Assembly: GCA_027451345.1 (NCBI GenBank)
Contig: DAIDJO010000095.1
Span: forward strand, 1 to 64,000
Reading direction: 5' to 3'
Source of the DNA: Solirubrobacterales bacterium
GTDB lineage: Bacteria; Actinomycetota; Thermoleophilia; Solirubrobacterales; Solirubrobacteraceae
Length of the DNA: 64,000 bases
Shown: one piece after another, positions 35,420 through 58,022 of the stretch
Numbering within the stretch: the first letter of the stretch is position 1
Layout of the letters: every line of letters begins with the position of its first letter
Program-made: the position numbers and the translations under genes
The notes under the pieces: model-generated
The model's input: only the letters and a program-made list of their open reading frames with translations
Databases searched by the model: none
Told to the model about the DNA's origin: nothing

Positions 35420-35791
35420 TCAGCGGAAGTACTCCGGCCGGCTCACGTAGGTGTCGGAGACGAACATCACGCCGGAGCGCTCCTCGAACAGCTCGCGCAG
35501 ACCGGCGAGGACCGCCTCGGCCCGCGCGTCGGGCATCACCGCGATGAGCAGGGAGAGCGTGTCGGTGTCGTTGAAGAGCAGTCGGCCGTGGTGGTAGCCG
35601 TGATGCCCGAATCCGGAGACCCCGGAGAGGCTCGTGTAGCCGGTCACCCCGGCGTGGCGCAGCAGGTTGGCCACCAGCGACGTGTCCGCGCTGCGAACCA
35701 CGACCTCGACCTTCGTCATGCGCGTGAGCCCGTCGCGCGCCGCGGGCTCCTGTCCCGTGACGCCACCGGCGTCGGATCGATTCGTGCTCAT
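35420..35791 (-). CDS. PII-like regulatory protein of DAB operon
   Basis: TKVEVVVRSADTSLVANLLRHAGVTGYTSLSGVSGFGHHGYHHGRLLFNDTDTLSLLIAVMPDARAEAVLAGLRELFEERSGVMFVSDTYVSR; PII-like ferredoxin fold/T-loop pattern; ATGA overlap with dabA. Confidence 0.8.
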   Translation of the reverse strand: MSTNRSDAGGVTGQEPAARDGLTRMTKVEVVVRSADTSLVANLLRHAGVTGYTSLSGVSGFGHHGYHHGRLLFNDTDTLSLLIAVMPDARAEAVLAGLRELFEERSGVMFVSDTYVSRPEYFR

Positions 35792-38583
35792 GTGTTCGTC
35801 TCCCGTGTGTGGATGGTGGCGGGGTGCCAGGGCGCCCAGTCTCCGGCCGGCGTGCGCCGCACCCACGGCCGGTCGGCCTCGTCACGGACGACCAGCGCGA
35901 CCCACTCGCCGTCGAGATAGTGCCGGAGCAGGTCGTTGCGCTCGACGAGCCGCCGCACGCGCTCCAGGGGCGCCTGGACGGCGTACAGCGCTCGCATCGG
36001 CTCGTGATGGAGCTCCGGCCCCGCTGCCACCGACTGCCACGGCAGCCCGAGCCGCAGGTCGCCGGCGTGCCCCTGCAGGACGCCGATGGTGCCGATCACG
36101 TTGTGCAGCGTCTTGTCCCCCGCTCCGAGCACCTCCGGGTCGGTCGTCGAGAAGTAGTACTGGGCGTTGATCCACTGGATGACGAGGCCCGGAGCGGTGA
36201 GGATCGTCTCCAGCGCCGTCCCGTCCGGATCGGCGCGCCAGTCATAGGAGTGCAGGAAGGTTCGGCATTCGAGGTCGAGCCCCGAGACCATCTCCCCCGG
36301 GCCGACGATGAAGGCGGCGTGACGGGCGAGTCCCCACTCGGGCCGGATCTGGGCCCAGTCTCGGGCGCGGCGCCGGGGGTGGTCGGCGCCGGGAAGGCGG
36401 GCCGCGCGCTCGAGCGCGAGCGCGCGGCCCGCGCGGTCCAGGGCGTCCTGCAGCGTGGCGACGTCATCCCGATGGCTTGCCGGGATCAGGTGGTGGTCGA
36501 GGATGCGGACCCGGTCGGTCGCCGTGTCGTGCTCGGCGGCCAGGAACCAGGTGTCCGGAGGGATCGCGATCCCGCGCCCGGCGAGGGCCTCGCGCAGGTC
36601 GGCTCGGTTGAGCAGCGCGCAGGCGATGCGGGCGTTCGGGCCGCCGCGCTGGCCACCGCAGGCGCCGCAGTCGAGCGCGGCCTCGTACGCGTTGTTCTCG
36701 GTGGCGGACCCGTGCCCGGTGATGAGCACCAGGCGGGCGAACTGCTCGACGAGGCCGAAGGAGCGCAGGGCGAACTCCGCCCAGTCGAGCTGCTCGGCGG
36801 GGTCGTAGCCCAGTGAGGTGGCCCGTGCCACGCGTCGGGCGTGGCCCTCGGCGCCGAGATCGAGCGCGTCGGCGAGCGACGGCTCCTCGCCCGCGAGGGC
36901 GCAGCGGCGCAGGCGCTCGCTCTCCGCCTCGGAGAGCCCGGGCCGCGCGAGATGGGCGCGGATCGCCTGGCGCTCGGCGGCGGCGACGATCGCCTCCGCC
37001 TCGACGGGCCCGGGGGCGTGCGCGACCGGCTCGGTGCGACGGGCCAGGGCGGCCGCGGCGAGGTGAGCGCGAGCTGTCCCGTAGCCCTCCGGGAGGACGG
37101 TCTTCAGCAGGGCGAGTGGCCCGGCCAGCCAGCCCCCCGCCTCGGCGAGCGCGAAGGGCGCGGCCAGGTCGTCCTTGGCGGCGTGAAAGGCGCCGTTGAC
37201 CGCCGCGGCGCGGCGCTCGGCGAGGATGCTCCGTGCCGCGTCGACCTCCTCCCCCGGCGAGACGCGCTCGCTCACCGACTTGGTCGGGGTGAGCGGCACC
37301 GGGCAGAGCCTCGCCCCGTGCGCGGAGTGCAGGGCGTGGTAGCGGATGACCAGCTGGTAGAAGCCGGCGAACCCGAACGTTCGGATGTTCCCCTGGGCCT
37401 CGAGGTGGCGACGCAGGCCCTCGGACCGCGCATCGATGCAGAACACCGCCTGGGCCGCAGGACGCGTCGGTGGGGTGGGCGGCGCGGGTCGACCCAGCGT
37501 CGCGAGCAGCTGATCCCGGTAGTGCCACTCGTAGGCGTCGAGCCAGACCCAGCCATACGCCGACTCCGGCAGGAGCGCGAGCAGGGCGACGAGTCCCGCC
37601 AGCTGCTCGGGCTCTGCGTCGGCCTGTCCCAGTGACGCCGCCAACCCGGACGCCAACCGGGACGGGTCCTCACCGGTCGCCGGCTCGGCCCCCGCGTGCG
37701 CCTCAACGAGCGCGCGGAGCGCCGCGACACCGTCGGGGAGCCGGCGACCGGCGGCCTGCTCGACGAGCGCGGCCTCGTAGGTCAGCCGAAGCGCGAGCAG
37801 GTCGCAGAGGTCGGCCGGGTGCGGGGCCTGGTCGGCGTGCTCCTCGCGCCATTTGATGTGGCTGCCGAACCCGGGCAGCCGGGCGAGCTGCGCCCGCAGC
37901 TCGCCCGTTTGCTCCGGAGATGGGATGCGGAGCCGCGCGAGGGCGGAGAGGATCGCGTCCTCCGGGCGCTCGGGCAGCTCGGCGAAGCGTCGGCGCTCGA
38001 CCCCGAGACGCCGCAGGGCCGGGTCGTGGGGCACGAGGGCGCGCCAGACCGCATACAGCCCGGCCTCGCGGCCGGGCATCGGCACCGCCGCGCCGGTCGT
38101 GTCGCAGAAGGCGGCACACCACTTCGCCACCTGTTCGTCGACGACTGGTGCCACCGCCGTGTCGAGGAGCCGGTCGCACCACTCCCCCGCGCCGCGCGGG
38201 ACGGTGCGCGGTGATGGCTCGTCGGTTCGGTGCAGGAGGGCGGCCCGCAGCGCGGCAACCGGGTTGAGCCGCCCCCCACCGAGGATGATGTCCGGATGCT
38301 CGGCGAGGGTGGGGACGCGGCGCCGCAGCGCCGCGTCCAGGTCGGCGTCGGTGATCCGCCCGGCCGCGTACCAGCCGTGGAACTGCGCGAGGGCCGGGCG
38401 CCCCCGCACGCCGAGCAGCGGCCCGGCGAGCGCGACCGCGTCCTCGAACGGCCGGTCCTCCAGGTCTCCGAGTGGGTTGACGGCGACGAAGGTCTCGAGC
38501 GGCCAGGTCGCGTGCAGGATCCGCGCTGCCGCACCGATCTGCGCCCGCAGACGGGAGCGCTCGGCGTCGGTTGGCGGGGTCAT
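35788..38583 (-). CDS. dabA: DUF2309/DabA family inorganic-carbon transporter subunit
   Basis: AQAVFCIDARSEGLRRHLE and LITGHGSATENNAYEAALDCGACGGQ contain the conserved Cys/Asp and His/Cys zinc-site residues; MTPPTDAERS start at 38583 overlaps the dabB stop. Confidence 0.93.
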   Translation of the reverse strand: MTPPTDAERSRLRAQIGAAARILHATWPLETFVAVNPLGDLEDRPFEDAVALAGPLLGVRGRPALAQFHGWYAAGRITDADLDAALRRRVPTLAEHPDIILGGGRLNPVAALRAALLHRTDEPSPRTVPRGAGEWCDRLLDTAVAPVVDEQVAKWCAAFCDTTGAAVPMPGREAGLYAVWRALVPHDPALRRLGVERRRFAELPERPEDAILSALARLRIPSPEQTGELRAQLARLPGFGSHIKWREEHADQAPHPADLCDLLALRLTYEAALVEQAAGRRLPDGVAALRALVEAHAGAEPATGEDPSRLASGLAASLGQADAEPEQLAGLVALLALLPESAYGWVWLDAYEWHYRDQLLATLGRPAPPTPPTRPAAQAVFCIDARSEGLRRHLEAQGNIRTFGFAGFYQLVIRYHALHSAHGARLCPVPLTPTKSVSERVSPGEEVDAARSILAERRAAAVNGAFHAAKDDLAAPFALAEAGGWLAGPLALLKTVLPEGYGTARAHLAAAALARRTEPVAHAPGPVEAEAIVAAAERQAIRAHLARPGLSEAESERLRRCALAGEEPSLADALDLGAEGHARRVARATSLGYDPAEQLDWAEFALRSFGLVEQFARLVLITGHGSATENNAYEAALDCGACGGQRGGPNARIACALLNRADLREALAGRGIAIPPDTWFLAAEHDTATDRVRILDHHLIPASHRDDVATLQDALDRAGRALALERAARLPGADHPRRRARDWAQIRPEWGLARHAAFIVGPGEMVSGLDLECRTFLHSYDWRADPDGTALETILTAPGLVIQWINAQYYFSTTDPEVLGAGDKTLHNVIGTIGVLQGHAGDLRLGLPWQSVAAGPELHHEPMRALYAVQAPLERVRRLVERNDLLRHYLDGEWVALVVRDEADRPWVRRTPAGDWAPWHPATIHTRETNT

Positions 38584-40187
38584 GCTCTCACCTGCTCGCG
38601 GGGCCGCAGGACCGGCAGCGGGAGCGCGACCCGGCGCCCGCCCGCCGCTCGAGGGATCGGCGCCGAGCGCGGACCACCGACGTGGCCGGCATCGAGCGCA
38701 CGGACGTAGAGCTCGGCGCGTGCCCACTCGACGCGCCGTGCCATCACGAGCCACACCGCCATCCCCCCGACCGGCAGCAGGCCGAGCCAGGGGCTCACGG
38801 CGGCACGGACGCCGTGCACCGCGGGGGCGAGGAAGGCATCGGCACCGGCGATCAGGCCGGCGTAGGCCAGGCAGGCGCCGCCGAGGACGAGCAGACCGCC
38901 CGCGGCGCGCCCCGGCGTCGCCCGCAGCCAGCCGTGGGCCAGGAGGGCGCCGGTGGCCCAGGCGAAGGCGAAGAGCACCACTGCCCCCGGGTGGGCGAGC
39001 GCACCCGAGGCGAACGTGGCGAGCGCGAGGGCGAGGGCGGCGCCCGGGACGAGCGCCGCGGCGAACGCCCGGGCCGTGCCGGTCCAGCGCACACCGGCGG
39101 GAGCGGGCGCCGGCACGACCCGCCGGCGCTTGTCGTTGTGGACGACCGAGTCCGCCCCGAGGAAGAGCGTCGCCTTGTAGAGCCCGTGCCCCGCGAGGTG
39201 GAAGATGGCCGCCGCGGGCACGCCGAGGCCGCAGGCCATCACCATGAAGCCCATCTGGCCCATCGTCGAATGGGCGAGCGCACCCTTGACGTCGGGTTTG
39301 GCGAGCATCAGCACCGTGCCGTACAGCGCCGTGGCGCCGCCGACCGTGAAGGCGAGGTAGGTGGCCGCCGGCGTGGCGCCGAAGAGCGGCGCGAAGCGTA
39401 CGAGCAGGAAGCCTCCGGCGTTGACCAGGCCGGCGTGCAGGAAGGCCGAGACCGGCGTCGGGGCGGCAAGTGTGGCGGGCAGCCAGCGCTGCAGGGGCAG
39501 CTGTGCGGAGCGTCCCATCGCCGCCACCACGATCAGGCAGGCCACGATGGTGCCCGCGCCGATGCCGAGCACGTGGTGGCGGCCGAGGGCGAGCGTGGCG
39601 GCGTGCAGCCGCCGCAGGTCGAGATCACCGACCGTGCACCAGGCGAGCACTCCGGCGGCGAGGAGCGCGCAGTCGCCGACTGCGAAGGCGGCGGCGGTGC
39701 GGCGCAGCCCGAGCCGGGCGGCCGGGAGATCGCGCCGCTGCGCGAGCAGGCGGAGCAGCCCGATCCCACTGAACAGCCAGGCGGCGATCAGGCCGCTGAG
39801 CGTCGCGGCGCAGACGAGCGCGCAGACCGCCGCGGTCGTCACCCCGAACCAGGCGATCAGCCGGGCCTGGCGTGGGTCGCCGGAGAGGTAGCGGCTGGCG
39901 AAGAGCTGCACCATCAGGCTGACGGTGAGGACGAGCAGGAGCATCACCACCGACAACCGGTCGGCGTAGAGCCCGAGCGTCGCGTCGCCCGCGGAGTTGG
40001 TGAGGACCGCCGATACGGGCCCGGCGCTGAGGATGTGCACCGTGACGAGAACGGTGAGCGCGAGGGCCACCGCGGCGAAGCCCGCCCCGACGCGTCCGGC
40101 GCCGTCCTCCAGTCGCGGGCCGGAGGCGGCGCAGAGGAGGCCGCCGATCATCGGCAGCGCCACGATGGCGAGGATCAGGGCGCTCAT
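38580..40187 (-). CDS. dabB: DabB, NuoL/MrpA-like proton-conducting membrane subunit
   Basis: Multi-TM; LRRLHAATLALGRHHVLGIGAGTIVACLIVVAAMGRSAQLPLQRWLPATLAAPTPVSAFLHAGLVNAGGFLLVR, NADH:quinone antiporter motif. Confidence 0.92.
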   Translation of the reverse strand: MSALILAIVALPMIGGLLCAASGPRLEDGAGRVGAGFAAVALALTVLVTVHILSAGPVSAVLTNSAGDATLGLYADRLSVVMLLLVLTVSLMVQLFASRYLSGDPRQARLIAWFGVTTAAVCALVCAATLSGLIAAWLFSGIGLLRLLAQRRDLPAARLGLRRTAAAFAVGDCALLAAGVLAWCTVGDLDLRRLHAATLALGRHHVLGIGAGTIVACLIVVAAMGRSAQLPLQRWLPATLAAPTPVSAFLHAGLVNAGGFLLVRFAPLFGATPAATYLAFTVGGATALYGTVLMLAKPDVKGALAHSTMGQMGFMVMACGLGVPAAAIFHLAGHGLYKATLFLGADSVVHNDKRRRVVPAPAPAGVRWTGTARAFAAALVPGAALALALATFASGALAHPGAVVLFAFAWATGALLAHGWLRATPGRAAGGLLVLGGACLAYAGLIAGADAFLAPAVHGVRAAVSPWLGLLPVGGMAVWLVMARRVEWARAELYVRALDAGHVGGPRSAPIPRAAGGRRVALPLPVLRPREQVRA

Positions 40188-40233
40188 GGTCGTCCCCCGC
40201 ATGGAGAGGAACTGCGGGCACGCCGCCTCACCA

Positions 40234-40608
40234 TCAGTGGACTCCCTCCAGGCAGTGCGCAGGCAGCGCGCGGCCGTCGAAGCCCCCGAGCCGCCGAAGG
40301 ATGTAGGGGTCGTGAACGATGCAGTAGAGCGAGCGCCCGCGGCTGAGCTCGGCGCGGATGTGCTCGGCCACCTCGTTGGCCGCCGTGCTGCGTCCGGCCG
40401 CGGAGGTGACATCGATCAGGATGTCCGGCGGTGGCGAGGCGAACCGGTGCGCCCAGGGTCCGAGCACGAGCGGGCGGGGGTCGTCGACCCGCTCGCCGAG
40501 GCCGGTCCGTGGCGTCCCGGCCTGCTCCTCCTCCCCCGCCGACTCCGCGAGGCGCTCCTCCCTCCAGTGCCGCTCGTCCGTCACGGCGTCCGATCGCTGA
40601 CCTGACAT
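40234..40608 (-). CDS. Uncharacterised small protein, first gene of the DAB operon
   Basis: About 124 aa, ATG at 40608 preceded by GGAGG; PDILIDVTSAAGRSTAANEVAEHIRAELSRGRSLYCIVHDPYILRRLGG; same strand as dabBA. Confidence 0.7.
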   Translation of the reverse strand: MSGQRSDAVTDERHWREERLAESAGEEEQAGTPRTGLGERVDDPRPLVLGPWAHRFASPPPDILIDVTSAAGRSTAANEVAEHIRAELSRGRSLYCIVHDPYILRRLGGFDGRALPAHCLEGVH

Positions 40609-40644
40609 TACGTTCCTCCGTTCGCGAGCCACTTAACGTGATTC

Positions 40645-40674
40645 ACAATAGGCGAATTCCAAAACGTCTGTCAA
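40645..40674 (-). promoter_or_regulatory. Sigma70-like promoter of the DAB operon
   Basis: Minus strand TTGACA (40669-40674), 18-bp spacer, TATTGT (40645-40650); GTGATTCAC palindrome at 40638-40646. Confidence 0.65.
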
Positions 40675-40713
40675 GGGGTAGGAATCAACGATCCCTCGTC
40701 GTACCCTGTGGCG

Positions 40714-41025
40714 ATGGCCGAGTGGACGTTCCTCACCAACCACGCCCACGTCCTGCTCTGCGTCGCGCGCGATCCCGGGGTGCGGCTGCGCGACGTGGCC
40801 GCGACCGTCGGGATCACCGAGCGGGCGGCGCAGAAGATCGTCGCCGACCTGGTGGAGGCGGGCTATCTGGAGCGTGAGCGCGAGGGGCGGCGCAACCGGT
40901 ACCGCCTGAACACCGATCTCCCTCTCCGCCACCCGATGGACCGCGAGCATCCGGTCGGGGAGATCATCGAGGTCTTCACGGGCGTCGAGCCCACCGGCCA
41001 CCCGGCTGAGCGGCCCGCTGTGTGA
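40714..41025 (+). CDS. Winged-helix (MarR-like) transcriptional regulator
   Basis: HAHVLLCVARDPGVRLRDVAATVGITERAAQKIVADLVEAGYLEREREGRRNRYRLN; divergent from the DAB operon. Confidence 0.85.
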   Translation: MAEWTFLTNHAHVLLCVARDPGVRLRDVAATVGITERAAQKIVADLVEAGYLEREREGRRNRYRLNTDLPLRHPMDREHPVGEIIEVFTGVEPTGHPAERPAV

Positions 41026-41178
41026 ACGCCCTCGGCACCGACGGTGCGCAGCGTGACGCCGGTGTCCGGGCCGCCGATCGTGCAGTCCGACGCTCGCTGC
41101 AGGTTCAGATCCTTGATTGCTCAGCCCAATGACGCGCCCAGGCAATCGCCCATCCGTGGCGCCGCGCCGGCTCGACGG

Positions 41179-41892: not shown

Positions 41893-43026
41893 ATGATCTT
41901 CGAACTCCCCGACGAGACCCGCCTGCTCCAGCGCACGGTGCGCGAGTTCGCCCAGAGCGAGGTGGCCCCCGCCGCCGAACACCTCGACGCCACCAAGTCC
42001 TTCCCCTATGAGATCGTCGCCCAGATGGGCGAGCTCGGCTGGATGGGGATCCCCTTTCCCGAGGAGGTCGGCGGCGCGGGCGGCACGACCCTGCAGTACG
42101 CGATCGCCGTCGAGGAGCTCACCCGCGTCGACTCGAGCGTCGCCATCACCCTGTGCGCCCACACATCGCTCGGCGTGCAGCCGATCTACCTCTTCGGCTC
42201 GGAGGCCCAGAGGGAGCGCTACCTCCCCGACCTGTGCGCGGGTCGCAAGCTCGGAGCCTTCGGACTGACGGAGCCGGGCGCCGGCTCCGACGCGGGCAAC
42301 ACGCTCACCCGTGCGCGCCTGCACGACGGCGAGTGGGTGATCGATGGCGCCAAACAGTTCATCACCAACGCCGGGACGACGATCTCGGGCCACGTGGCCA
42401 TCACCGCGCGGACGGGGCAGGACGAGATCTCGAACCTGATCGTGGAGAACGGCACCCCCGGGTACGAGCAGGGCGAGCCGTACCGCAAGATGGGCTGGCA
42501 TGCCTCCGACACGCGCCCGCTCACCTTCGAGAACTGCCGTGTCCCCGAGGAGAACCTGCTCGGCCCGCGCGGCAACGGCTTCAGGCAGTTCCTGAAGGTG
42601 CTCGACATCGGCCGCATCGGCGTGGCCGCCATGGGCGTGGGTCTCGCACAGGGCGCGCTCGACCAGGCCATCGCCTACGCGAAGGAACGTCAGGCCTTCG
42701 GTCAGAGCATCGGCAAGTTCCAGGCGATCCAGATCAAGCTCGCCGACATGGCGACCGAGATCGAGGCGGCCCGGCTGCTCGTCTACAAGGCCGCGTGGCT
42801 GAAGGACGAGGGCCGCGACTTCTCGCTCACCGCGGCCCAGGCGAAGCTGAAGACCGGCCGGCTCGCGGTGCGCTGCGCCGATGAGGCGGTCCAGATCCAC
42901 GGCGGCTACGGGTACATCGAGGAGTACCCGATCTGCCGCTTCTACCGGGACGCGAAGATCCTCACGATCGGCGAAGGGACCGACGAGATCCAGCAGATGG
43001 TCATCGCCCGGAGCCTCACGGCATGA
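41893..43026 (+). CDS. Acyl-CoA dehydrogenase (isovaleryl-CoA dehydrogenase-like by context)
   Basis: GAFGLTEPGAGSDAGNTLTRARL; VRCADEAVQIHGGYGYIEEYPICRFYRDAKILTIGEGTDEIQ. Confidence 0.92.
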   Translation: MIFELPDETRLLQRTVREFAQSEVAPAAEHLDATKSFPYEIVAQMGELGWMGIPFPEEVGGAGGTTLQYAIAVEELTRVDSSVAITLCAHTSLGVQPIYLFGSEAQRERYLPDLCAGRKLGAFGLTEPGAGSDAGNTLTRARLHDGEWVIDGAKQFITNAGTTISGHVAITARTGQDEISNLIVENGTPGYEQGEPYRKMGWHASDTRPLTFENCRVPEENLLGPRGNGFRQFLKVLDIGRIGVAAMGVGLAQGALDQAIAYAKERQAFGQSIGKFQAIQIKLADMATEIEAARLLVYKAAWLKDEGRDFSLTAAQAKLKTGRLAVRCADEAVQIHGGYGYIEEYPICRFYRDAKILTIGEGTDEIQQMVIARSLTA

Positions 43027-43952
43027 CGGACGCGCTCCCGGACACGGTGTGCATCCGGGAGGTCGGGCCACGCGACGGCTTCCAGAACGAGCCCGAGGTG
43101 ATCCCGACCGACGCGAAGGTGCGGCTGATCGACCGGCTGGCGCGCACCGGTCTGCGCCGCCTCGAGGTCACCTCGTTCGTGCGGCCCGACGTGATCCCCC
43201 AGCTCGCCGACGCGACCGAGGTGCTGCGGCGGATCGACGTCCCCCCCGGCATCGCGGTGACCGTGCTCATCCCCAACGAGCGCGGGTTCGAGCTCGCGCT
43301 GCCCCTGCGCGAGCACTTCAGCGAGATCAACGGCTTCCTGAGCGCCTCCGAGACCCACAACCGCCACAACGTCAACCGCACGGTGGCGGAGTCGCTCACC
43401 GGGCTCGAGCGGGTGATCGGGCGCGCCCGCGAGGAGGGACTGCGGGCCGAGGGGGTGATCTCGACCGCCTTCGGCTGCCCGTACGAGGGCGAGGTCCCCG
43501 CCGAGCGGGTGCTCGCCATCGCCCGGCGGCTGGTCGAGGCCGGGGCGCAGGAGATCGCCTTCGGTGACACGACCGGGATGGCCAACCCCCGCCAGGTGAG
43601 CGCGTTCTTCGCTCAGGCGCGGGAGGCGCTCGGGCCGGCGGTCGAGCTGACGGCGCACTTCCACAACACGCGCGGCCAGGGCCTCGCCAACGTGCTCGCG
43701 GCGCTGCAGGCGGGCTGCGCGTCGTACGAGTCGAGCTTCGGCGAGCTCGGCGGCTGCCCCGTGCCCCCCGGGGCGACGGGGAACATCGCGACCGAGGACC
43801 TCGTCTCGATGCTCGAGGAGATGGGGATCGCCACCGGCGTCGATCTCGACGCGCTGCTCGCCGCGGCCGCGGCCGTCCGCGAGGTGCTCGGCCGGCCGCT
43901 CGGCTCCCACACCCTCACCGCCGGGCCGGTGAACTGGCACCGCAGCGCATGA
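43023..43952 (+). CDS. Hydroxymethylglutaryl-CoA lyase
   Basis: CIREVGPRDGFQNEPEVIPTDAKVRLIDRL; YESSFGELGGCPVPPGATGNIATEDLV. Confidence 0.92.
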   Translation: MTDALPDTVCIREVGPRDGFQNEPEVIPTDAKVRLIDRLARTGLRRLEVTSFVRPDVIPQLADATEVLRRIDVPPGIAVTVLIPNERGFELALPLREHFSEINGFLSASETHNRHNVNRTVAESLTGLERVIGRAREEGLRAEGVISTAFGCPYEGEVPAERVLAIARRLVEAGAQEIAFGDTTGMANPRQVSAFFAQAREALGPAVELTAHFHNTRGQGLANVLAALQAGCASYESSFGELGGCPVPPGATGNIATEDLVSMLEEMGIATGVDLDALLAAAAAVREVLGRPLGSHTLTAGPVNWHRSA

Positions 43953-45825
43953 TCGGCCCGGTCCTGATCGCCAACCGCGGGGAGATCGCGGTTCGCGTCG
44001 CTCGCACCGCCCACGCGAACGGATTGCCCGTGGTGGCGATCCACACCCCCGCCGACGCGGGCGCGCTGCACGTCGAGGTGGCCGACAGCGCCGTGATGGT
44101 CCCCTCCTACCTCGACATCGATGCGGTGATCGACGCCGCGCAGCGGGCCGGCGCGCGCTCGGTCCACCCCGGGTACGGGTTCCTCTCCGAGAACGCCCGC
44201 TTCGCCCAGGCCGTCGCCGACGCCGGCCTGACCTGGATCGGGCCGCCCCCCGAGGCGATCGCGCTGATGGGGGACAAGGCCCGAGCCAAGCGGTTCGCGC
44301 GCGAGGCGGGCGTGCCCGTCGTCCCCGGCCTGGAGGCCGATGACCTCGATCTGGAGGACCTGCGCGGGTTCTGCGCCGAGCACGGCTTTCCCGTCGTGAT
44401 CAAGGCGCTCGCCGGCGGCGGCGGCAAGGGCATGCGCGTCGTGCGGGCGGCCGAGGAGCTCGACGCCTCCCTCGACGCGGCACGACGGGAGGCGACGGCC
44501 GCCTTCGGCGACGGGCGCGTGCTCATCGAACGCTACCTCGAGCGCCCGCGCCACATCGAGGTGCAGGTGCTCGCCGACCGCCACGGCAACGTCATCCACC
44601 TCGGCGAGCGCGAGTGCTCGCTGCAGCGCCGCCATCAGAAGGTCGTCGAGGAGGCCCCCTCACCGGTGATCGACGCGGAGCGCCGCGCCCGGATGGGGCA
44701 GGCCGCGATCGCGCTGGCGCGACGCTGCGGGTATGAGAGCGCCGGCACGATCGAGTTCATCACCCCCGCCGACGGGCACGAGTTCTTCTTCCTCGAGATG
44801 AACACGCGACTGCAGGTCGAGCACCCGGTGACCGAGCTCGTCTACGGGGTCGACCTCGTCCAGGAGCAGTTGCGGGTCGCCGCCGGACGGCCCCTCACCC
44901 TCGACCAGGCCGCGCTCGTCCCGCGCGGGCACGCCGTCGAGGCGCGACTGTACGCGGAGGACCCGAGCCACGGCTTTCTCCCCTCGACCGGGCTGATCCG
45001 CGCCTATCGCGAGCCGGTGGACGCCGGGGTGCGGGTCGATTCCGGGGTCCGGCAGGGGACCGAGGTGGGGACCGCATATGACCCGATGCTCGCGAAGGTG
45101 ATCGCCCACGGGCCCGACCGTGAGACGGCGCTCCAGCGCCTCGACCGCGCGCTCGCCACGTTCGATCTCGTCGGGGTGAGCACGAACGCCGCCTTCACCC
45201 GCGCGCTGATCGCGCGCGATGACGTCCGGGCCGGGGAGCAGGACACCGGGCTGCTCGAGCGTGTGCTCGCCGAGCTCGACAGCGCCCCGCCGGCGGACCT
45301 CGTCCCCGCCGCGATGCTCGCCGCCGCCGGGACCAGCCGCCCGGCCGGGCCCTGGCGGCGCGCGCTCGCCGACCGCCCGGAGGCGCGGGTGGGCGACGGG
45401 CGGGTCCGCCTCGGCGACGTCGCCTGGGACGCGGCGATCCGGTGGGATGCGGGCCAGCGGGCCCGCATCACGCTCGACGGGATCGAGCGACGTTACGCCG
45501 TGGTGGTGAGCGAGGAATGCGTGTGGATCGCGCGAGACGGCCACCACCTCGCCGTGCGCACCGCGGTCCCCGCGCGCTCGGAGGGCGGTGTCCTGCACGG
45601 GTCACTCGAGGCGCCGATGCCGGGCACCGTCCTGCTCGTCGAGGTGGCCGACGGCGAGGCGGTGCAGCCGGGCGACCTGCTGCTCGTGCTCGAATCGATG
45701 AAGATGGAACTCTCGATCACGGCGCCGCACGCGGGCGTCGTCGCCGGCCTGTCGCTGCAGCCGGGCGACCGGGTGGCGCTCGGTCAGCCGCTCGTGGCGA
45801 TCCTCGACCCGGAGGAGGAGACGCG

Positions 45826-45829
<4 letters not shown>
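43949..45829 (+). CDS. Acyl-CoA carboxylase alpha subunit (biotin carboxylase + BCCP; methylcrotonyl-CoA carboxylase-like)
   Basis: [35 protein letters not shown]; biotinylation motif [12 protein letters not shown]. Confidence 0.93.
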
Positions 45830-47355
<1,526 letters not shown>

Positions 47356-47376
47356 GGCCCAGGAGGCCCGAGAGAC

Positions 47377-48165
47377 ATGAACGACGACGCACCCGTCCGC
47401 TACGAGTCCACCGGCGCGGGAATCGTGACCATCACGATGGACGATCCGGACACCCGCAACGCGCTGTCCGACGCGATGCTCGACGCGCTGATCGTCGCCC
47501 TGGAGCGGGCGCGGGACGACGAGGGCGTGCGCTGCGTCGTGCTCGCCTCGAGCCACGCCACGGTGTTCAGCTCGGGCGGGGACCTCGGCGGGTTCGCCGC
47601 GGAGGTGCCGCTCGCCCACAAGCACCTCGCCACCGAGCGGTTCCCCCGCCTGTTCACGCTGATCGGCTCGCTCGGCAAGCCGACCGTCTGCGCGGCGCGC
47701 GGCCACGTGCTGGCCGGCGCGCTCGGCCTGGCGCTCGCCTGCGACCTCGTCGTCGCCTCCGACCGGGCCACGTTCGGCACGCCCGAGATCAACGTCGGCG
47801 TCTTCCCGTTCATGATCATGGCGCTCATCTACCGCAACGTCGGGCGCAAGAAGACCAACGAGCTGCTTCTGCTCGGGGAGCGGATCGACGCCCACGAGGC
47901 GGCGAGGATCGGGATCGTCAACCGGGTCGTGCCCGACGACGGCTTCGATGCCGCCGTCGCCGACTGGGCGGGACGGCTCGCCGCGAAGTCCCCCCTGCTG
48001 ATGCGGCTCGGCAAGGACGCGATGTTCCGTCAGCAGGACATGGCGCTCGCCGACGCGCTCGACTTCCTGCACGCGCAGCTGACGCTCGCCTTCGCCACCG
48101 AGGACATCCGGGAGGGCGTGCAGGCCTTCTTCGAGAAGCGCGAACCGGTCTGGCGCGGCCGTTGA
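47377..48165 (+). CDS. Enoyl-CoA hydratase (methylglutaconyl-CoA hydratase-like by context)
   Basis: GIVTITMDDPDTRNALSDAMLDALIVAL; ARGHVLAGALGLALACDLVVAS. Confidence 0.9.
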   Translation: MNDDAPVRYESTGAGIVTITMDDPDTRNALSDAMLDALIVALERARDDEGVRCVVLASSHATVFSSGGDLGGFAAEVPLAHKHLATERFPRLFTLIGSLGKPTVCAARGHVLAGALGLALACDLVVASDRATFGTPEINVGVFPFMIMALIYRNVGRKKTNELLLLGERIDAHEAARIGIVNRVVPDDGFDAAVADWAGRLAAKSPLLMRLGKDAMFRQQDMALADALDFLHAQLTLAFATEDIREGVQAFFEKREPVWRGR

Positions 48166-49190: not shown

Positions 49191-50561
49191 GTGGACAGGT
49201 CAGCGGCCGTGTTCCAGACTCGCGTCACAGATTCCGGCTTCCCCATTCCTCCGGCTCTCACCGAGGAGCTGAGGCCGGCGCTGACCGCTCGGCAGGTCCG
49301 GGCTGAGGCCGAGCGATGCCTGCTCTGCGGCGTGCCCGAGGCGCCGGCCCCGTGCGTCGTCGCATGCCCGGCCGACGTCGACATACCGGCCTTCATCGAG
49401 TCGCTCGCCGGCGATGACCCCGACAGCGCGGCGACGACGGTCTTTGCGGCCAACCTGTTGAGCGGGACCTGCGCGCGCTGCTGCCCGGTGGAGGTGCTCT
49501 GTGAGGCGGGATGCGTGCTCAGTCGGGAGGCTCGACGACCGATCGAGATCGGGGCGTTGCACCGCTATGCCGCCGACTGGGGCCTTGCCCGGCCGCCGGC
49601 CAGGCGTGCGCCGGTGAGCCGGCGCGACGAGCGCGTCGCCGTGATCGGGGCGGGCCCCGGCGGCCTCGCCTGCGCCGGCGAGCTGGCCGCGAGCGGCTTC
49701 GCGGTGACCGTCTACGAGGCGCGCGGCGAGCCCGGGGGGCTCGTGCGCCGAGCCATCGCGCCCTACCGCCAGCTGAACGAGCCGCTGCCCGCCGAGACCC
49801 AGATGATCGCCGAGCTCGGCGCCGAGCTTCGCTTCGGCCACCCGATCGAGAGCGCGGAGGCCCTGCACGCCCTCGAGGCAGAGTGCGAGGCGATCGTGCT
49901 GGCCGTGGGCATGGGCGCAGACGTCACGGTCGACTATCCCGGGGACCACCTGCCCGGGGTGTGGACCTCGCTGCACTTCATCGAGCAGGTGAAGGCGGGG
50001 CGGGTCACCGACATCGGCCAGCGGGTGCTGGTCATCGGTGGGGGCAACACCGCCGTCGACGTCGCTCGCATCGCGGTCCGCCTCGGGGCGGGTGAGGTGA
50101 CCATGGTCTACCGTCGCGGGGAGGCGCAGATGCCCGCCTACGCCCACGAGGTCGCCGAGGCCAAGGCGGAGGGCGTGCGCCTCGAGGTGCTGACCGATGC
50201 GCTGCGGTTCCTCGGCACGGACCGACTCACCGGGGTCGAGCTGCGGCGCACCCGACTGCAGCCCGACGGCGGCGGCAGGCCGCGACCCCAGGCGCTCGAG
50301 GGCACCGAGTTCGTGATGCCCGCGGACACCGCGATCACCGCGATCGGCCAGCAGCCGCGCCGCGAGCTGCTCAGCTGGGTGGACGGGCTGGTGCTGCGCA
50401 ACGGCCTTCCCGAGGTGGACCCTGCCAGCGGGCGCACCGCCAATCCGAAGTACTACGCGGGCGGGGATGTCGTCAACGGCGGGGACACCGTCGTCGAGGC
50501 GGTTCGCTGGGGCAAGCTGATCGCGGGAGCGATCGCACAGCGAGCGGAGAGACGGCCATGA
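49191..50561 (+). CDS. GltD-like NAD(P)H/FAD oxidoreductase with N-terminal Fe-S domain
   Basis: CLLCGVPEAPAPCVVACPADVDIPAFIE..CARCCPVEVLCEAGCV; VAVIGAGPGGLACAGELAASGFAVTVYE; VIGGGNTAVDVARIA. Confidence 0.9.
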   Translation: MDRSAAVFQTRVTDSGFPIPPALTEELRPALTARQVRAEAERCLLCGVPEAPAPCVVACPADVDIPAFIESLAGDDPDSAATTVFAANLLSGTCARCCPVEVLCEAGCVLSREARRPIEIGALHRYAADWGLARPPARRAPVSRRDERVAVIGAGPGGLACAGELAASGFAVTVYEARGEPGGLVRRAIAPYRQLNEPLPAETQMIAELGAELRFGHPIESAEALHALEAECEAIVLAVGMGADVTVDYPGDHLPGVWTSLHFIEQVKAGRVTDIGQRVLVIGGGNTAVDVARIAVRLGAGEVTMVYRRGEAQMPAYAHEVAEAKAEGVRLEVLTDALRFLGTDRLTGVELRRTRLQPDGGGRPRPQALEGTEFVMPADTAITAIGQQPRRELLSWVDGLVLRNGLPEVDPASGRTANPKYYAGGDVVNGGDTVVEAVRWGKLIAGAIAQRAERRP

Positions 50562-50812
50562 GCACGCCGTCCGCCGCCGCACGTCCCGTCAAGGATCTCG
50601 AGCCGAGACGGTACCGCCACGGCGATGCCGTGCTGACCACCTACCGGGGCTGGTGCAAGGGCTGTGACCTCTGCATCAGGTCATGCCCGTCCGGGATCCT
50701 CGCCCTGGCCGATGATGACCGGATCGAGGTCACGGACATCTCGCGCTGCATCTTCTGCGGGATCTGCGTGGTTCGCTGCCCCGACTTCGTCTTCGAGCTC
50801 GACCGCAACTGA
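50558..50812 (+). CDS. 2-oxoacid:acceptor oxidoreductase delta subunit (ferredoxin-type 2x[4Fe-4S])
   Basis: YRGWCKGCDLCIRSCPSGIL; ISRCIFCGICVVRCPDFVFEL. Confidence 0.9.
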   Translation: MSTPSAAARPVKDLEPRRYRHGDAVLTTYRGWCKGCDLCIRSCPSGILALADDDRIEVTDISRCIFCGICVVRCPDFVFELDRN

Positions 50813-50825
50813 AAGCGAGGGCGAC

Positions 50826-51956
50826 GTGCAACAGCTGATTCAGGGCAACGAGGCGTGTGCACTGGGCGCTGTGGCGGCCGGCTGCTCGTTCTTCGCGGGC
50901 TACCCGATCACCCCGTCGAGCGAGATCATGGAATGGATGTCGCGCCTGCTGCCCCCTCGCGGCGGGGTGTTCATCCAGATGGAGGATGAGCTCTCCTCGA
51001 TGGGTGCGGTGATCGGCGCGAGCTGGACCGGGGCGAAGGCGATGACCGCCACCTCGGGCCCCGGGTTCACGCTCATGCAGGAGCACATCGGCTACGCGGC
51101 GATGACCGAGACCCCGTGCGTGATCGTCGACGGGCAGCGCGTCGGGCCGAGCACCGGGATGCCGACGTCCCCCGCCCAGGGGGACGTCATGCAGGCCCGC
51201 TGGGGTTCGCACGGCGACCGGGCCGCGATCGCCCTCACCGCCTCATCGGTGCTGGACACCTACACGATGACGATCGAGGCGTTCAACATGAGCGAGCGCT
51301 ACCGCCTTCCGGTGGTGCTGCTGCTCGACGCCACGCTCGCCCACATGCGGGAGAACGTGATCCTCCCGGACATTCCGATCGTCAACCGGTCGCGACCGGG
51401 GTCGATCGACGACTTCGCTCCGTTCGGCTCACCCGAGTTCCTGCCCCTGGGAGCGGGCGCCCGGTTCACCGTCAGCGGACTGTCGCACGACGAGGCGGGG
51501 CACCAACGGGCCGCGAAGAGTGACGCCGGGGAGCGCCTCACGCGGCGCGCGATCGAGCGGGTCGCCGCGGACGCCGAGCGGATCACGCTCACCCGCCAGG
51601 AGGCGTTGGACGACGCCGAATTGGTCCTGGTCGCCTACGGGATCACCGCCCGGGCGGCACGCGCCGCCGTGCACCAGCTGCGTGCCGAGGGGATTCCGGC
51701 CGGCCTGTTGGAGCTGCAGACGCTGTGGCCGTTTCCCGCTGAGCTGGTCGGCTCCGTGGCCCGCAACGCGCGCGCCGTGGTGGTCGCCGAGCTCAACCTC
51801 GGGCAGGTGGTGACGCTGGTGAGTGCGGTGGCGGGCACGACGCCCGTCCATCACCTGGGCCGGATGGATGGCGCGCTGCTCGAACCGGACGCGATCGCCG
51901 CGGCCGGCCGCACGGCGTTGCACGACGCGGTCCAGGAGGTGGGAGCGGCGCGATGA
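50826..51956 (+). CDS. 2-oxoacid:acceptor oxidoreductase alpha subunit (KorA-like)
   Basis: GTG start; GNEACALGAVAAGCSFFAGYPITPSSEIMEWM; TATSGPGFTLMQEHIGYAAM. Confidence 0.92.
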   Translation: MQQLIQGNEACALGAVAAGCSFFAGYPITPSSEIMEWMSRLLPPRGGVFIQMEDELSSMGAVIGASWTGAKAMTATSGPGFTLMQEHIGYAAMTETPCVIVDGQRVGPSTGMPTSPAQGDVMQARWGSHGDRAAIALTASSVLDTYTMTIEAFNMSERYRLPVVLLLDATLAHMRENVILPDIPIVNRSRPGSIDDFAPFGSPEFLPLGAGARFTVSGLSHDEAGHQRAAKSDAGERLTRRAIERVAADAERITLTRQEALDDAELVLVAYGITARAARAAVHQLRAEGIPAGLLELQTLWPFPAELVGSVARNARAVVVAELNLGQVVTLVSAVAGTTPVHHLGRMDGALLEPDAIAAAGRTALHDAVQEVGAAR

Positions 51957-52774
51957 GACACGGAGAGCATCTGCGGGCGTACCTTCGCGAGGAGGCGATG
52001 CCGAACGTCTGGTGTCCGGGCTGTGGCCACGGCAACGTGATGGGAGCGCTGACACGCACCTTCGACCGCATGCAGCTCGACCTCGACGCGACGGTGGTGA
52101 TCGGCGGCATCGGCTGCGCCAGCCGGATGCCGTTCTTTCTCAACACCAACGCCATGCACACGACGCACGGACGCGCCTTGACCTTCGCGACCGGGGTCAA
52201 GCTCGCCCGCCCCGAGTTGACCGTGCTGGCCGTCATGGGTGACGGGGACGCGCTCGCGATCGGGGGCAACCACCTGATCCACGCGTGCCGACGCAACATC
52301 GACGTGACCGCGCTGGTCCTCAATAACGGCATCTACGGGATGACGGGTGGGCAGCTCGCTCCCTCGACGCCGCAGAGCTTCCGCTCAACCACCAGCGCGC
52401 TCGGAAGCATCGAGTCACCGTTCGACACGGTCGAGCTGGCGCTCGCCGCCGGAGCGACGTACGTCGCACGCGCCACGACGTTCGACTTCGACGAGATGCC
52501 CCAGATGATCGAGGCGGCGATCCGCCATCCGGGATTCGCCCTGGTCGAGATCCTCAGCCAGTGCCCGACCTACTTCGGGCGGCTGAACAAGCTCGGCGAC
52601 GGCCGTGCGCTGCTGGACTACGAGAGGGATCACACCGCGCCGCTCGAGGGGATCACGCGGGAGGAACTGGCCGGGCAGCTGCCGATCGGGGTCTTCCGCG
52701 AGGAGATCCGGCCTGAGTACACGCGCCAGTACGCCGCGCTCTGCGACCGGGCCCGGAGGGCGGGCAATGGCTGA
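51953..52774 (+). CDS. 2-oxoacid:acceptor oxidoreductase beta subunit (KorB-like, TPP)
   Basis: MPNVWCPGCGHGNVMGALTRTF; TVLAVMGDGDALAIGGNHLIHACRRNIDVTALVLNNGIYGMTGGQLAPSTP. Confidence 0.93.
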   Translation: MRHGEHLRAYLREEAMPNVWCPGCGHGNVMGALTRTFDRMQLDLDATVVIGGIGCASRMPFFLNTNAMHTTHGRALTFATGVKLARPELTVLAVMGDGDALAIGGNHLIHACRRNIDVTALVLNNGIYGMTGGQLAPSTPQSFRSTTSALGSIESPFDTVELALAAGATYVARATTFDFDEMPQMIEAAIRHPGFALVEILSQCPTYFGRLNKLGDGRALLDYERDHTAPLEGITREELAGQLPIGVFREEIRPEYTRQYAALCDRARRAGNG

Positions 52775-53354
52775 GCTCAACACCCGCAACGGGCAGGTGG
52801 TGGGCTCCGCGCTCGCCACACGGGTGCAGACGGGGATCCGGATCGCGGGCCGCGGCGGGCAGGGCGTCATGCTCGCCGGCCTGCTGGTCGCCCAGGCGGC
52901 GATCGATGACGGGCTCGAGGTCGTCCAGACGCAGAGCTACGGCCCCGAGGCGCGGCTGGGCGCCGCCAAATCCGACGTGATCCTGTCCCATGAGCCCATC
53001 GCCTACCCGGAGATCGGCGCGCCCGACCTCTTCCTCTGCCTCTCCCACGACGCCTTCACGGCCTATGGCCACGACATCGCACCGAACACGCGGCTGATCA
53101 TGGACGCGCGGGCCGCGCGCGGGCTCGACGTCGGCGAGGCGGTTCTGGTCCCCATGGTCGACACCGCCCGTGACTGCGGCGCGATCATCGCCGCCAACAT
53201 CGTCGGTCTCGGCTTCCTCGTGGGCATGACCGACGTGGTCTCCGAGCGGTCACTGCGGCGGGCTCTGGCCGCCCGGGCGCGACCCGAGTCGCTGGAGAGC
53301 AACATGCGCGCGCTGGACGCGGGATTGGCGCTGGCGGCGGAGCGCCGTCTGTAG
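52767..53354 (+). CDS. 2-oxoacid:acceptor oxidoreductase gamma subunit
   Basis: GIRIAGRGGQGVMLAGLLVAQAAIDDGLEVVQTQSYGPEARLGAAKSDVILSHEPIAYP. Confidence 0.92.
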   Translation: MAELNTRNGQVVGSALATRVQTGIRIAGRGGQGVMLAGLLVAQAAIDDGLEVVQTQSYGPEARLGAAKSDVILSHEPIAYPEIGAPDLFLCLSHDAFTAYGHDIAPNTRLIMDARAARGLDVGEAVLVPMVDTARDCGAIIAANIVGLGFLVGMTDVVSERSLRRALAARARPESLESNMRALDAGLALAAERRL

Positions 53355-53613: not shown

Positions 53614-54372
53614 TCAGCTGAGGGCCTGCGGGTCGGCCGCCAGCCCGGGCAGCCAGCCCGCGGCGTCGCGCCGGAACGCTTCCGGCGCGAGGGCGCCGGC
53701 GCCCGCCGGAACGGCGCCGAGCAGCGGCACCGGGTGGGCGGCGAGGTAGGCGCGGTTGCTGAGCTCGATCGGGTCGGGCTCCTCGGGCCAGGCGCCGATG
53801 ATCGCGCCGTGGATCGGCACTCGCCGCCGCTGGATGGCCTCGAAGGTGAGCTCGCTGTGGTTCAGGGTCCCGAGCGCGGCGCGGCAGACGACGATGGCGG
53901 CCACCGACGTCTCCCCCTGCTCGATCAGCCCCGCCGCCATGTCGGGCAGCGTGTGCCCGGCGCCGTCGAGCTGGACGAGAAGCCCGCCGGCGCCCTCGAC
54001 GAGCAGGTGATCCACCGTCGCCGCGATCCGGCGGATGGTCTCGAGGTGGGTCGCGAGCGGTGGGAGCTCGACCCCCTCCCGCTCTGCGGCGGCCACCGGA
54101 GCCATCGGGTGGAGGAGCCGGATGCCCTCGTGGACGTTCTCGAGCCCGCCGAGCGTGCGGACGACGTCGATGTCACCGCGGCCGTCCTCGAGCCCCGCTT
54201 GCGTCGGCTTGTAGACGGCGACCGTCCGGCCGGCGGCGCGCAGCGCGGCGCCGATCGCGGCCGTGGCGATCGTCTTGCCGACCCCGGTGTCGGTGCCGGT
54301 GACGAAGAGCAGGCGCGGGAGCGGTGCCGGCGGGGCGAGTGGCCCGGCGTCAGAGGGTGGGGCGCCCATCAC
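53614..54372 (-). CDS. bioD: Dethiobiotin synthase
   Basis: LLFVTGTDTGVGKTIATAAIGAALRAAGRTVAVYKPTQAG; LLVEGAGGLLVQL. Confidence 0.93.
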   Translation of the reverse strand: MMGAPPSDAGPLAPPAPLPRLLFVTGTDTGVGKTIATAAIGAALRAAGRTVAVYKPTQAGLEDGRGDIDVVRTLGGLENVHEGIRLLHPMAPVAAAEREGVELPPLATHLETIRRIAATVDHLLVEGAGGLLVQLDGAGHTLPDMAAGLIEQGETSVAAIVVCRAALGTLNHSELTFEAIQRRRVPIHGAIIGAWPEEPDPIELSNRAYLAAHPVPLLGAVPAGAGALAPEAFRRDAAGWLPGLAADPQALS

Positions 54373-55547
54373 GGGCGCCCCGCCAGCGGTCCCACGGCGG
54401 CCGGCGACCGCTCGGCGCCCTCCCGCGCGGTGGCGGCCGCAAGCGCCGCGGCGGCCGCCGCTGCGTCGGGGTCGAGGTCGGCACGGGCGGTCAGGCGCAG
54501 CCGCGAGATGCCGTCCGGCACGCTCGGGGGCCGGAAGCAGCCGACGAGCACGCCCGCGCGCTAGAGCCCGTCGGCGGCCTCGGCGGCCGCCTCGGGGTCG
54601 CCGACCGGGATCGACTGCACCGCGCCGGCGCTCCGGGGGATGTCGGCCGCGGTCGCGATCACCGCCGCGAGCGCGTGAAGCCGCTGCACTCGGTCCGGTT
54701 CATCGAGGATGACGCGGCAGGCGGCGGCCGCCGCAGCGGCGGCGGCCGGAGCGAGGGCGGTATCGAAGAGGAACGTCCGCGCGGTGTTCACCAGGTGCTC
54801 GCGCACGGCGGCGGGACCCAGGACCGCGCCGCCCTGGCTGCCGAGCGCCTTGGAGAGGGTGGCGGTGACGACCACGTGCCCGGCGCCCGCCAGGCCGGCG
54901 GCGTGGACGGCGCCCCGTCCGTCCCCCGCCACGCCGATGCCGTGCGCCTCATCGACGATCAGCAGCGCGTCGTGCCGCGCGCAGAGTGTTGCGGTGGCCG
55001 CCAGGTCGGCGGCGTCGCCGGAGACCGAGTAGACCGACTCGACCGCCACGAGCGCACGGGCCTCGGCGCGCGTGCGCAGCGCCCGCTCGAGCGCGTCGAG
55101 GTCGGCGTGGGGAACGACCTGCACCGGCGAGCGGGAGAGCCGAGCGCCGTCGATCAGCGACGCGTGCACGTGCGCGTCGGTGATGAGCAGCGTCTCGGCG
55201 CTGCCCAGCGCGGTGAGGACGCCGAGGTTCGCCGCGTACCCGCTCGAGAAGACCAGACAGCTCGGTTGGCCGGTGAGCCGGGCCAGCTCGTGCTCGATCT
55301 CCTCGTGCGCCTGCGTCGTGCCGACGACGACGCGCGAGGCGCGGGCACCGGCGCCGAAGCGGGCGAGGGCCGCCGCGGCCGCCTCGCGCAGGCGCGGGTC
55401 GGCGGCCAGGCCAAGGTAGTCGTTGGAGGCGAGATCCAGGAGGTCGGTGCGGCCCGCGGGGCTGCGCTCCGAATCGGTCCGGCGCACCCGGTGGCACCGC
55501 TCGCGCTCGGCCGCCGCCGCCGCCAGCCAGTCCTGCATCGCCCCCAT
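54369..55547 (-). pseudogene. bioF: 8-amino-7-oxononanoate synthase interrupted by in-frame TAG at 54561-54563
   Basis: LDLASNDYLGLAADPRLREAA...DEAHGIGVAGDGRGAVHAAG...VVTATLSKALGSQGG; after ADGL*, the same frame continues RAGVLVGCFRPPSVPDGISRLRLTARADLD (BioF C terminus). Confidence 0.88.
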
Positions 55548-56932: not shown

Positions 56933-56951
56933 CGCGTCCGCGTGCCGGGGC

Positions 56952-58022
56952 TCACGCGTTGGGCGCGAGCTCGGTGCCGGCGCCCCGCCGCCGCAGCGCC
57001 ACCTCCGGCGTCCGCGCCGCGGCGATCTCCCCGGCGTCGTGCCCGGAGGAGCGCACGCGGAACCCGGCGTCGGCGATCATCTCGAGGTCCGCGGCGGCCG
57101 CCTGCCCCTCGCTCGTCAGATAGTCCCCGAGGAAGAGCGAGTTGGCCAGGTGCAGCGCGACCGGTTGCAGCGAGCGCAGATGCATCTCTCGGCCGCCGGC
57201 CATGCGGATCTCGCGATCCGGGCAGGTGAAGCGGGCGAGCGCGAGGATGCGCAGGCAACGCAGCGGCGTGAGCAGCGAGGTCCCGGCGAGCGGCGTGCCG
57301 TCGAAGGGCATCAGGAAGTTCACCGGGATCGAGTCGCTGTCGAGCTCGCGCAGCGCGAAGAGGGTGTCGATCACCTCGTCGTCGCTCTCCCCCATCCCGA
57401 CGATCAGCCCCGAGCACGGTGACAGACCGGCCTGCTTGGCCCGCTGCACCGTCTGCACGCGGTCGTCATAGGTGTGGGTGCTGCAGATCTCGGCGTAGCG
57501 GGACTCGGCCGTGTTGAGGTTGTGGTTGTACGCGTCCACGCCGGCGGCCTTCAGCATCTCCGCCTGGCCGTCGCGCAGGAGGCCGAGGCAGGCGCACACC
57601 TCGACGTGCGGGTGCTCGGCCTTCAGCTCGTCGACGAGCTCGGCGAACCGCTCGACGTCGCCGGCGCTCGGGCCGCGGCCACTGGCCACCATGCAGATGC
57701 GCGAGGCGCCGCCCTCGATGCCGGCCCGCGCCTGAGCCAGAGCCTCCTCCTGGGGGAGCCAGCGGTACTTCAGGACGTCGGCCTCGGAACCGAGGCGCTG
57801 CGAGCAGTAGCCGCAGTCCTCCGGGCAGAGACCCGATTTCAGGTTGACGAGGTAATTGACCTTCACCCAGTCGCCGAAGTGCTCCCGGCGCAGGCGCGCG
57901 CCCGCGGCGACCAGGTCCATGACCTCCTCGTCGGGGGCGGCGAGGATCGCACGAGCGTCGTTACGGCTCAGCACCGCGCCCCCGAGTTGCTGATCGGCGA
58001 GGTCGTTCCAGTTGGCGGCCAT
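56952..58022 (-). CDS. bioB: Biotin synthase (radical SAM)
   Basis: [54 protein letters not shown]. Confidence 0.96.

What the first reader, a model, noticed from the sequence alone, without database searches (positions are those of the whole stretch)
35420..40608. DAB-type CO2/bicarbonate accumulation operon with a PII-like gene in an apparently heterotrophic actinobacterium
DabA keeps the zinc/carbonic-anhydrase-like residues (CID and GHG...CGACGG) and DabB is NuoL-like. A PII-like protein closes the operon; genes overlap by ATGA (35788-35791, 38580-38583). Established: DabAB accumulates inorganic carbon, and bicarbonate/adenylate-responsive PII-like proteins occur beside carbon transporters in autotrophs. 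No RuBisCO or carboxysome genes are visible here, so the system may serve anaplerosis under low CO2 with PII-like feedback.
Basis: partly seen in the sequence, partly recalled or inferred. Interest (0 to 1): 0.62.

Follow-up and report, generated by a model that had tools for sequence, protein, structure and literature searches.

The report
Regulated CO2-trapping operon in RuBisCO-free bacterium
An actinobacterium in which no Calvin-cycle enzyme RuBisCO was found carries an apparently intact membrane machine that turns CO2 into bicarbonate, together with a bicarbonate-sensor-like protein and a regulator gene; this is a well-annotated new example of a known system rather than a new kind of system.

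Summary
On the minus strand lie an uncharacterised small ORF, dabB, dabA and a PII-like gene, with ATGA overlaps at 38580-38583 and 35788-35791. All zinc-site, proton-path and coupling residues mapped onto the solved DAB2 complex are kept (one Lys to Arg). The PII-like protein is closest, by sequence and predicted fold, to CPII of Thiomonas, crystallised with ADP/AMP and bicarbonate. No RuBisCO was found in this 85%-complete genome. In 146 genomes of the family, 12 have DabA, 18 have RuBisCO and none has both; none of 14 genomes with this PII-like gene has RuBisCO. So the heterotroph reading is supported. Most of it is already known: DABs occur in heterotrophs, and Halothiobacillus DAB1 has the order dabB, small membrane-protein gene, dabA, PII. 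What I add: a divergent MarR-type regulator conserved beside DAB operons across phyla; a conserved TTGACA promoter with a candidate operator in its spacer; a conserved small ORF; coexistence of DAB with beta-carbonic anhydrase, said to be rare; and a leucine-degradation-type biotin carboxylase operon next door here, with a pyruvate carboxylase next door in one relative. New member of a known kind; moderate interest.

The parts
35420..35791 (-). CPII-type PII-like protein, 123 aa, last gene of the operon
   Evidence: PF00543 E 2.9e-20; best PDB 5d4n/5d4l CPII E 4e-20; AlphaFold model, Foldseek top hits all CPII, prob 1.00
35788..38583 (-). dabA, beta-CA-like vectorial CO2 hydration subunit, 931 aa
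   Evidence: PF10070 E 5e-237; profile hit to DabA2 9rd0_A E 3e-242 with zinc site and Glu444 equivalents kept
38580..40187 (-). dabB, NuoL-like proton-conducting subunit, 535 aa (in-frame alternative ATG at 40202)
   Evidence: PF00361/PF00662; profile of DabBs hits 9rd0_B first, E 6e-97; S247, H251, K301, S307, H330, H334, K338 invariant
40234..40608 (-). small conserved ORF of unknown function upstream of dabB (alternative GTG start at 40584)
   Evidence: no Pfam/NCBIfam match; homologues upstream of dabB in L032, L075, L115, L116, L117, L118, L127 with 14 invariant residues
40645..40674 (-). TTGACA-N18-TATTGT promoter with conserved ACG...TTCG candidate operator in the spacer
   Evidence: only promoter-like site in 40200-41100, 0 in shuffles; L060 26-mer finds it as the best of 64 kb, 21/26 with next best 15; counterparts upstream of other DAB operons
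40714..41025 (+). MarR/winged-helix regulator, 103 aa, divergent from the operon (outside the finding's coordinates)
   Evidence: PF12802 E 6e-8; close homologues in the DAB neighbourhood of other loci of Actinomycetota, Bacillota and a Spirochaetota MAG

Best explanation
This is a proton-motive-force-driven vectorial carbonic anhydrase (DabA plus DabB). It hydrates CO2 in the cytoplasm and holds it as bicarbonate in an organism that does not fix CO2 through RuBisCO. The bicarbonate supplies biotin-dependent carboxylases: pyruvate carboxylase/PYC-OADA-type enzymes and acyl-CoA carboxylases, one in the adjacent leucine-degradation-type operon. Output is probably controlled twice: the divergent winged-helix protein represses the operon by binding a palindrome-like element between -35 and -10, and the CPII-type protein reads bicarbonate and adenylates and restrains the pump when bicarbonate is ample, which would limit futile cycling with the cell's beta-carbonic anhydrase. 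Shown here: the genes, conserved catalytic residues, conserved neighbours, conserved promoter element, absence of detectable RuBisCO and presence of beta-CA. Inferred: activity, ligand binding, repression, brake function and the carboxylase sink.
For: DabA zinc ligands C382/H624/C639, the D384-R386 dyad and E481 match DabA2 C351/H524/C539, D353-R355 and E444 (roles from PMC13144422). DabB keeps all seven proton-path residues tested by mutation in DabB2. No RuBisCO in the own genome; DabA and RuBisCO never together in 146 family genomes; none in 10 other DAB+PII genomes outside the family. Two PYC_OADA matches in the own genome and no PEPC. Biotin carboxylase and carboxyltransferase at 43949-47355; pyruvate carboxylase beside DAB in L081. 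CPII as nearest solved protein. Regulator and promoter element conserved. Canonical beta-CA (CMDSR...HTDC) in the own genome.
Against: Nothing was measured. The genome is 85% complete, so RuBisCO could be missing by chance, although the family pattern makes this unlikely. CA and DAB-type MpsAB together gave no growth benefit in staphylococci (PMC8552792), so the physiological need is unclear. Close relatives (L060, L075, L119, L121) and Nocardiopsis (L031) have the DAB without the PII-like gene, so PII is not obligatory. Adjacency of the carboxylase operon is not conserved across loci.
Confidence: 0.7

Rival explanations
1. The operon serves autotrophic CO2 fixation that was not seen: RuBisCO lies in the missing 15% of the genome, or another CO2-fixation pathway is used.
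For: Genome 85% complete; some relatives in the family carry RuBisCO; a 2-oxoacid:ferredoxin oxidoreductase operon lies at 50871-53354.
Against: 0 of 12 DabA-bearing family genomes, 8 of which are at least 90% complete and at most 5% contaminated, has RuBisCO; 10 further DAB+PII genomes lack it. 2-oxoacid:ferredoxin oxidoreductases are common in heterotrophic actinobacteria (own knowledge).
Confidence: 0.08
2. The complex imports bicarbonate with Na+ (as proposed for S. aureus MpsAB) or mainly handles ions/pH, rather than hydrating CO2.
For: MpsAB was proposed to be a Na+/HCO3- symporter (PMC13144422 introduction, citing others); DabB is homologous to Mrp subunits.
Against: The complete zinc site and Asp-Arg dyad needed for DAB2 activity are kept; DAB2 appears sodium-independent (PMC13144422).
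Confidence: 0.15
3. The PII-like gene is a general nitrogen PII or an unrelated rider, not a regulator of this pump.
For: Several DAB operons of the same clade lack it; no interaction evidence.
Against: Best match is CPII, not GlnB/GlnK; it follows dabA in 12 other loci of several phyla and in H. neapolitanus (PMC4633670).
Confidence: 0.15

Closest known systems
Halothiobacillus neapolitanus DAB1 operon (nuoL/dabB1, small TM hypothetical, DUF2309/dabA1, PII/SbtB homologue, small hypothetical; PMC4633670)
   Same: Same order dabB-dabA-PII
   Different: Autotroph with RuBisCO and carboxysome genes around it; an extra TM gene between dabB and dabA; here a small ORF before dabB and a divergent MarR-type gene
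H. neapolitanus DAB2 complex (PDB 9rd0; PMC13144422)
   Same: Both subunits homologous; catalytic, proton-path and finger-motif glutamate residues conserved
   Different: DabA is 931 aa against 870; DabB Lys235 is Arg226; host without detectable RuBisCO; PII-like gene attached
CPII of Thiomonas intermedia (PDB 5d4l-p, 5drk, 5ds7)
   Same: Closest solved relative by sequence (E 4e-20) and model fold (prob 1.00, 40% identity); much of the glycine-rich loop is shared
   Different: CPII is carboxysome-associated in an autotroph; here a genome without detectable RuBisCO
Staphylococcus aureus MpsAB(C) (PMC6689103, PMC8552792)
   Same: DAB homologue supplying inorganic carbon in a heterotroph
   Different: S. 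aureus has no carbonic anhydrase; here a canonical beta-CA coexists; no PII is mentioned in the MpsAB text I searched (PMC8552792)

Membership tests
DAB / DIC-accumulating complex | DabA PF10070 with Cys2His zinc site and Asp-Arg dyad | tested here: met
   C382, H624, C639, D384, R386 invariant and aligned to 9rd0_A
DAB / DIC-accumulating complex | NuoL-like DabB with proton-path residues | tested here: met
   S247, H251, K301, S307, H330, H334, K338
DAB / DIC-accumulating complex | DabA finger-motif glutamate (Glu444) | tested here: met
   E481, nearly invariant in A1, aligned to E444
DAB / DIC-accumulating complex | Energy-coupled Ci accumulation, rescue of CA-null E. coli | not testable with these tools
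   needs an experiment
CPII (carboxysome-associated PII-like) | Sequence and fold closest to CPII among PII proteins | tested here: met
CPII (carboxysome-associated PII-like) | Location in a carboxysome/RuBisCO operon | tested here: not met
   no RuBisCO found in the genome; so filed as CPII-like, not carboxysome-associated
CPII (carboxysome-associated PII-like) | Binds ADP/AMP with bicarbonate | not testable with these tools
   needs calorimetry or a crystal structure
SbtB (cyanobacterial) | C-terminal redox R-loop with two cysteines | tested here: not met
   P0001 contains no cysteine
Heterotrophic DIC supply of the MpsAB kind | No RuBisCO in the host | tested here: met
Heterotrophic DIC supply of the MpsAB kind | Carbonic anhydrase usually absent | tested here: not met
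   canonical beta-CA in the own genome; all 12 DabA-bearing family genomes have a PF00484 match

The most novel reading that the evidence does not exclude
A self-contained inorganic-carbon homeostasis module of RuBisCO-free bacteria (repressor with its own operator, small protein, DAB, CPII-like sensor) has spread across Actinomycetota, Bacillota and others. The CPII-like protein acts as a brake that lets a vectorial carbonic anhydrase coexist with an ordinary one, so CPII signalling is not a carboxysome feature but a general bicarbonate-set-point device.
Probability: 0.3. Interest if true: 0.55.

Novelty: new member of a known kind. Interest (0 to 1): 0.36.

Why it matters
It makes a tidy test of why bacteria that do not fix CO2 by RuBisCO keep a CO2-concentrating pump, and of what the PII-like gene that follows dabA is for when there is no carboxysome. 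The conserved regulator and promoter element give a direct handle on when such pumps are switched on.

Tried and rejected
Replacement of carbonic anhydrase by DAB: rejected for this genome, which keeps a canonical beta-CA. Hidden RuBisCO: searched in the own genome, the family and 19 other DAB genomes; of those 19 only Halomicrobium (L046) and a Nitrospirae MAG (L034) matched. Function of the small ORF: no family, no credible solved relative (the only profile hits were short, presumably chance matches to a plant-virus coat protein) and a low-confidence model (pLDDT 66), so no fold search was run on it. Regulon of the regulator: the operator pattern with one mismatch gave 3 sites in the genome, and of these only the DAB one has known context; a paralogue of the regulator sits on contig C75 beside genes that I did not identify further. 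Acid-mine-drainage origin of several MAG relatives: suspected from isolate labels, the paper search found nothing. The CPII and DAB discovery papers are not in the library.

Full report
What is there. The minus strand between 40608 and 35420 carries four genes read in one direction: a small ORF (40234-40608), dabB (38580-40187, or from the in-frame ATG at 40202), dabA (35788-38583) and a PII-like gene (35420-35791). Pfam gives DabA 789 bits, the NuoL-type Proton_antipo_M and _N domains for DabB, and P-II 73 bits for the last gene. The small ORF has no family, yet homologues with 14 invariant residues lie just upstream of dabB in seven other loci, so it is very probably a real, undescribed member of the operon.

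Is the machine intact? A profile of 13 DabAs matches the solved DabA2 (9rd0_A) over almost its whole length. The zinc ligands Cys351, His524 and Cys539 of DabA2 correspond to C382, H624 and C639 here; the Asp353-Arg355 dyad to D384-R386; and the transmembrane finger glutamate Glu444 to E481. In DabB the seven polar residues whose mutation impairs DAB2 (S256, H260, K310, S316, H339, H343, K347) are S247, H251, K301, S307, H330, H334 and K338, all invariant in the alignment. Lys235 is replaced by Arg226. The residue roles are taken from PMC13144422. The complex should therefore work as a proton-motive-force-driven vectorial carbonic anhydrase; that is inference from conservation, not a measurement.

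The PII-like protein. Sequence search and profile search both put CPII of Thiomonas first. A model from nine window and locus sequences (mean pLDDT 77, the loop at residues 60-73 uncertain) gives the CPII entries as the top Foldseek hits, including those solved with ADP, AMP and bicarbonate. It contains no cysteine, so it lacks the redox loop of cyanobacterial SbtB. Ligand binding is not shown here.

Autotroph or not? RuBisCO is not found in the held genome (85% complete). In 146 genomes of the family DabA occurs in 12 and RuBisCO in 18, with no overlap; by chance 1 to 2 would be expected, so this is no proof of avoidance, but it shows that the DABs here are not tied to the Calvin cycle. The PII-like gene at strong scores occurs in G000, G041, G113 and (a fragment at a contig end) G115, none with RuBisCO, and in ten named genomes outside the family search (Pseudonocardia, Geodermatophilus, Curtobacterium, other Actinomycetota, Bacillota, a Spirochaetota MAG), again none with RuBisCO. 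The family is probably Solirubrobacteraceae: locus L092, titled as that family, appears to be the same 5012-base contig as G051:C116. The own genome has two PYC_OADA matches but no PEPC.

Carbonic anhydrase. Fan et al. (PMC8552792) write that MpsAB and carbonic anhydrase rarely coexist in one species and argue that coexistence would waste bicarbonate. Here the genome has a beta-CA with the canonical CMDSR...HTDC ligands, all 12 DabA-bearing genomes of the family have a PF00484 match, and so do 9 of 12 DAB genomes outside it, the exceptions being three Bacillota MAGs. This is a mild exception to the published rule and gives the PII-like protein a plausible job as a brake, but DAB operons without PII also live beside a CA, so the link is not proven.

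Regulation. A 103-aa winged-helix (MarR-type) gene starts at 40714 on the plus strand, divergent from the operon and outside the finding's coordinates. Close homologues sit beside DAB operons in Actinomycetota, Bacillota and a Spirochaetota MAG, mostly divergent, in L094 upstream in line and in L084 and L096 downstream. Between the two genes is one sigma-70-type promoter, TTGACA-N18-TATTGT, at 40674-40645. The 26 bases at the same place in L060, used as a query, find this site as the best of all positions in the 64 kb (21 of 26, next best 15), and no shuffled query of 2000 scored as well at the site. Across 15 loci the consensus is TTGACA.aCG.....AatTCG..aaT (a few, such as L033 and L094, are weak or tied best hits; no clear site was found in L076, L084, L095, L101, L115 and L118). 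The half-sites ACG and TTCG in the spacer look like an operator for a repressor; binding is inferred.

Neighbours. Immediately beyond a TetR gene, at 41893-48165 on the plus strand, is an operon of acyl-CoA dehydrogenase, hydroxymethylglutaryl-CoA lyase, biotin carboxylase/BCCP, carboxyltransferase and enoyl-CoA hydratase, which reads as leucine/isovalerate degradation with a bicarbonate-consuming 3-methylcrotonyl-CoA carboxylase (pathway assignment by gene content, not by an equivalog hit). A biotin-synthesis-type operon follows at 53614-58022 (gene calls; identities from the sequence by eye). The carboxylase neighbour is not conserved at other DAB loci, except that L081 has a pyruvate carboxylase divergent from its DAB. 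I treat this as suggestive only.

History. In a DabA tree the window falls with Pseudonocardia, Nocardiopsis and G113 (99/98 support), while DABs of four genomes that belong or appear to belong to its own genus (L060, L075, L119, L121) form a sister group without PII. DabA identity is 65% to Pseudonocardia and about 51% to the two same-genus proteins aligned. Either two DAB lineages existed in the group or one was acquired horizontally; GC content of the operon (0.72-0.77) does not stand out.

Verdict. To the extent the held literature allows me to judge, the regulator, promoter element, small ORF and CA coexistence in this group are the new details; they raise it above routine but do not make a new kind.

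Noticed in passing
window 41893-48165 (+): Leucine-degradation-like operon with biotin carboxylase and carboxyltransferase next to the DAB operon; a possible bicarbonate consumer.
   Followed up: partly
window 53614-58022 (-): Apparent biotin synthesis operon (bioD, bioF, bioA, bioB by sequence), about 13 kb from the DAB operon.
   Followed up: no
window 49332-53354 (+): 2-oxoacid:ferredoxin oxidoreductase alpha, beta, gamma genes with a ferredoxin and a GltD-like NAD(P)-binding protein.
   Followed up: no
L081 2-2962 (-): Pyruvate carboxylase gene divergent from a DAB-PII operon in a Bacillota MAG; the PII gene there appears frameshifted.
   Followed up: partly
L125 5762-6313 (+): A beta-carbonic anhydrase gene about 2.4 kb from a CPII-like gene fragment at a contig end (G115).
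   Followed up: no
L032 9479-9952 (-): A second copy of the MarR-type regulator downstream of the DAB operon in Pseudonocardia, beside what looks by eye like a TerC-type membrane protein gene.
   Followed up: no
L119 10005-10058: Two neighbouring copies of the AATTCGCTA-like element upstream of the DAB operon.
   Followed up: no
L026, L027, L029, L030: Long ORFs of several hundred aa with three weak PII-like repeats each in family genomes; unexplained and possibly an artefact of the search profile or of GC-rich frames.
   Followed up: no
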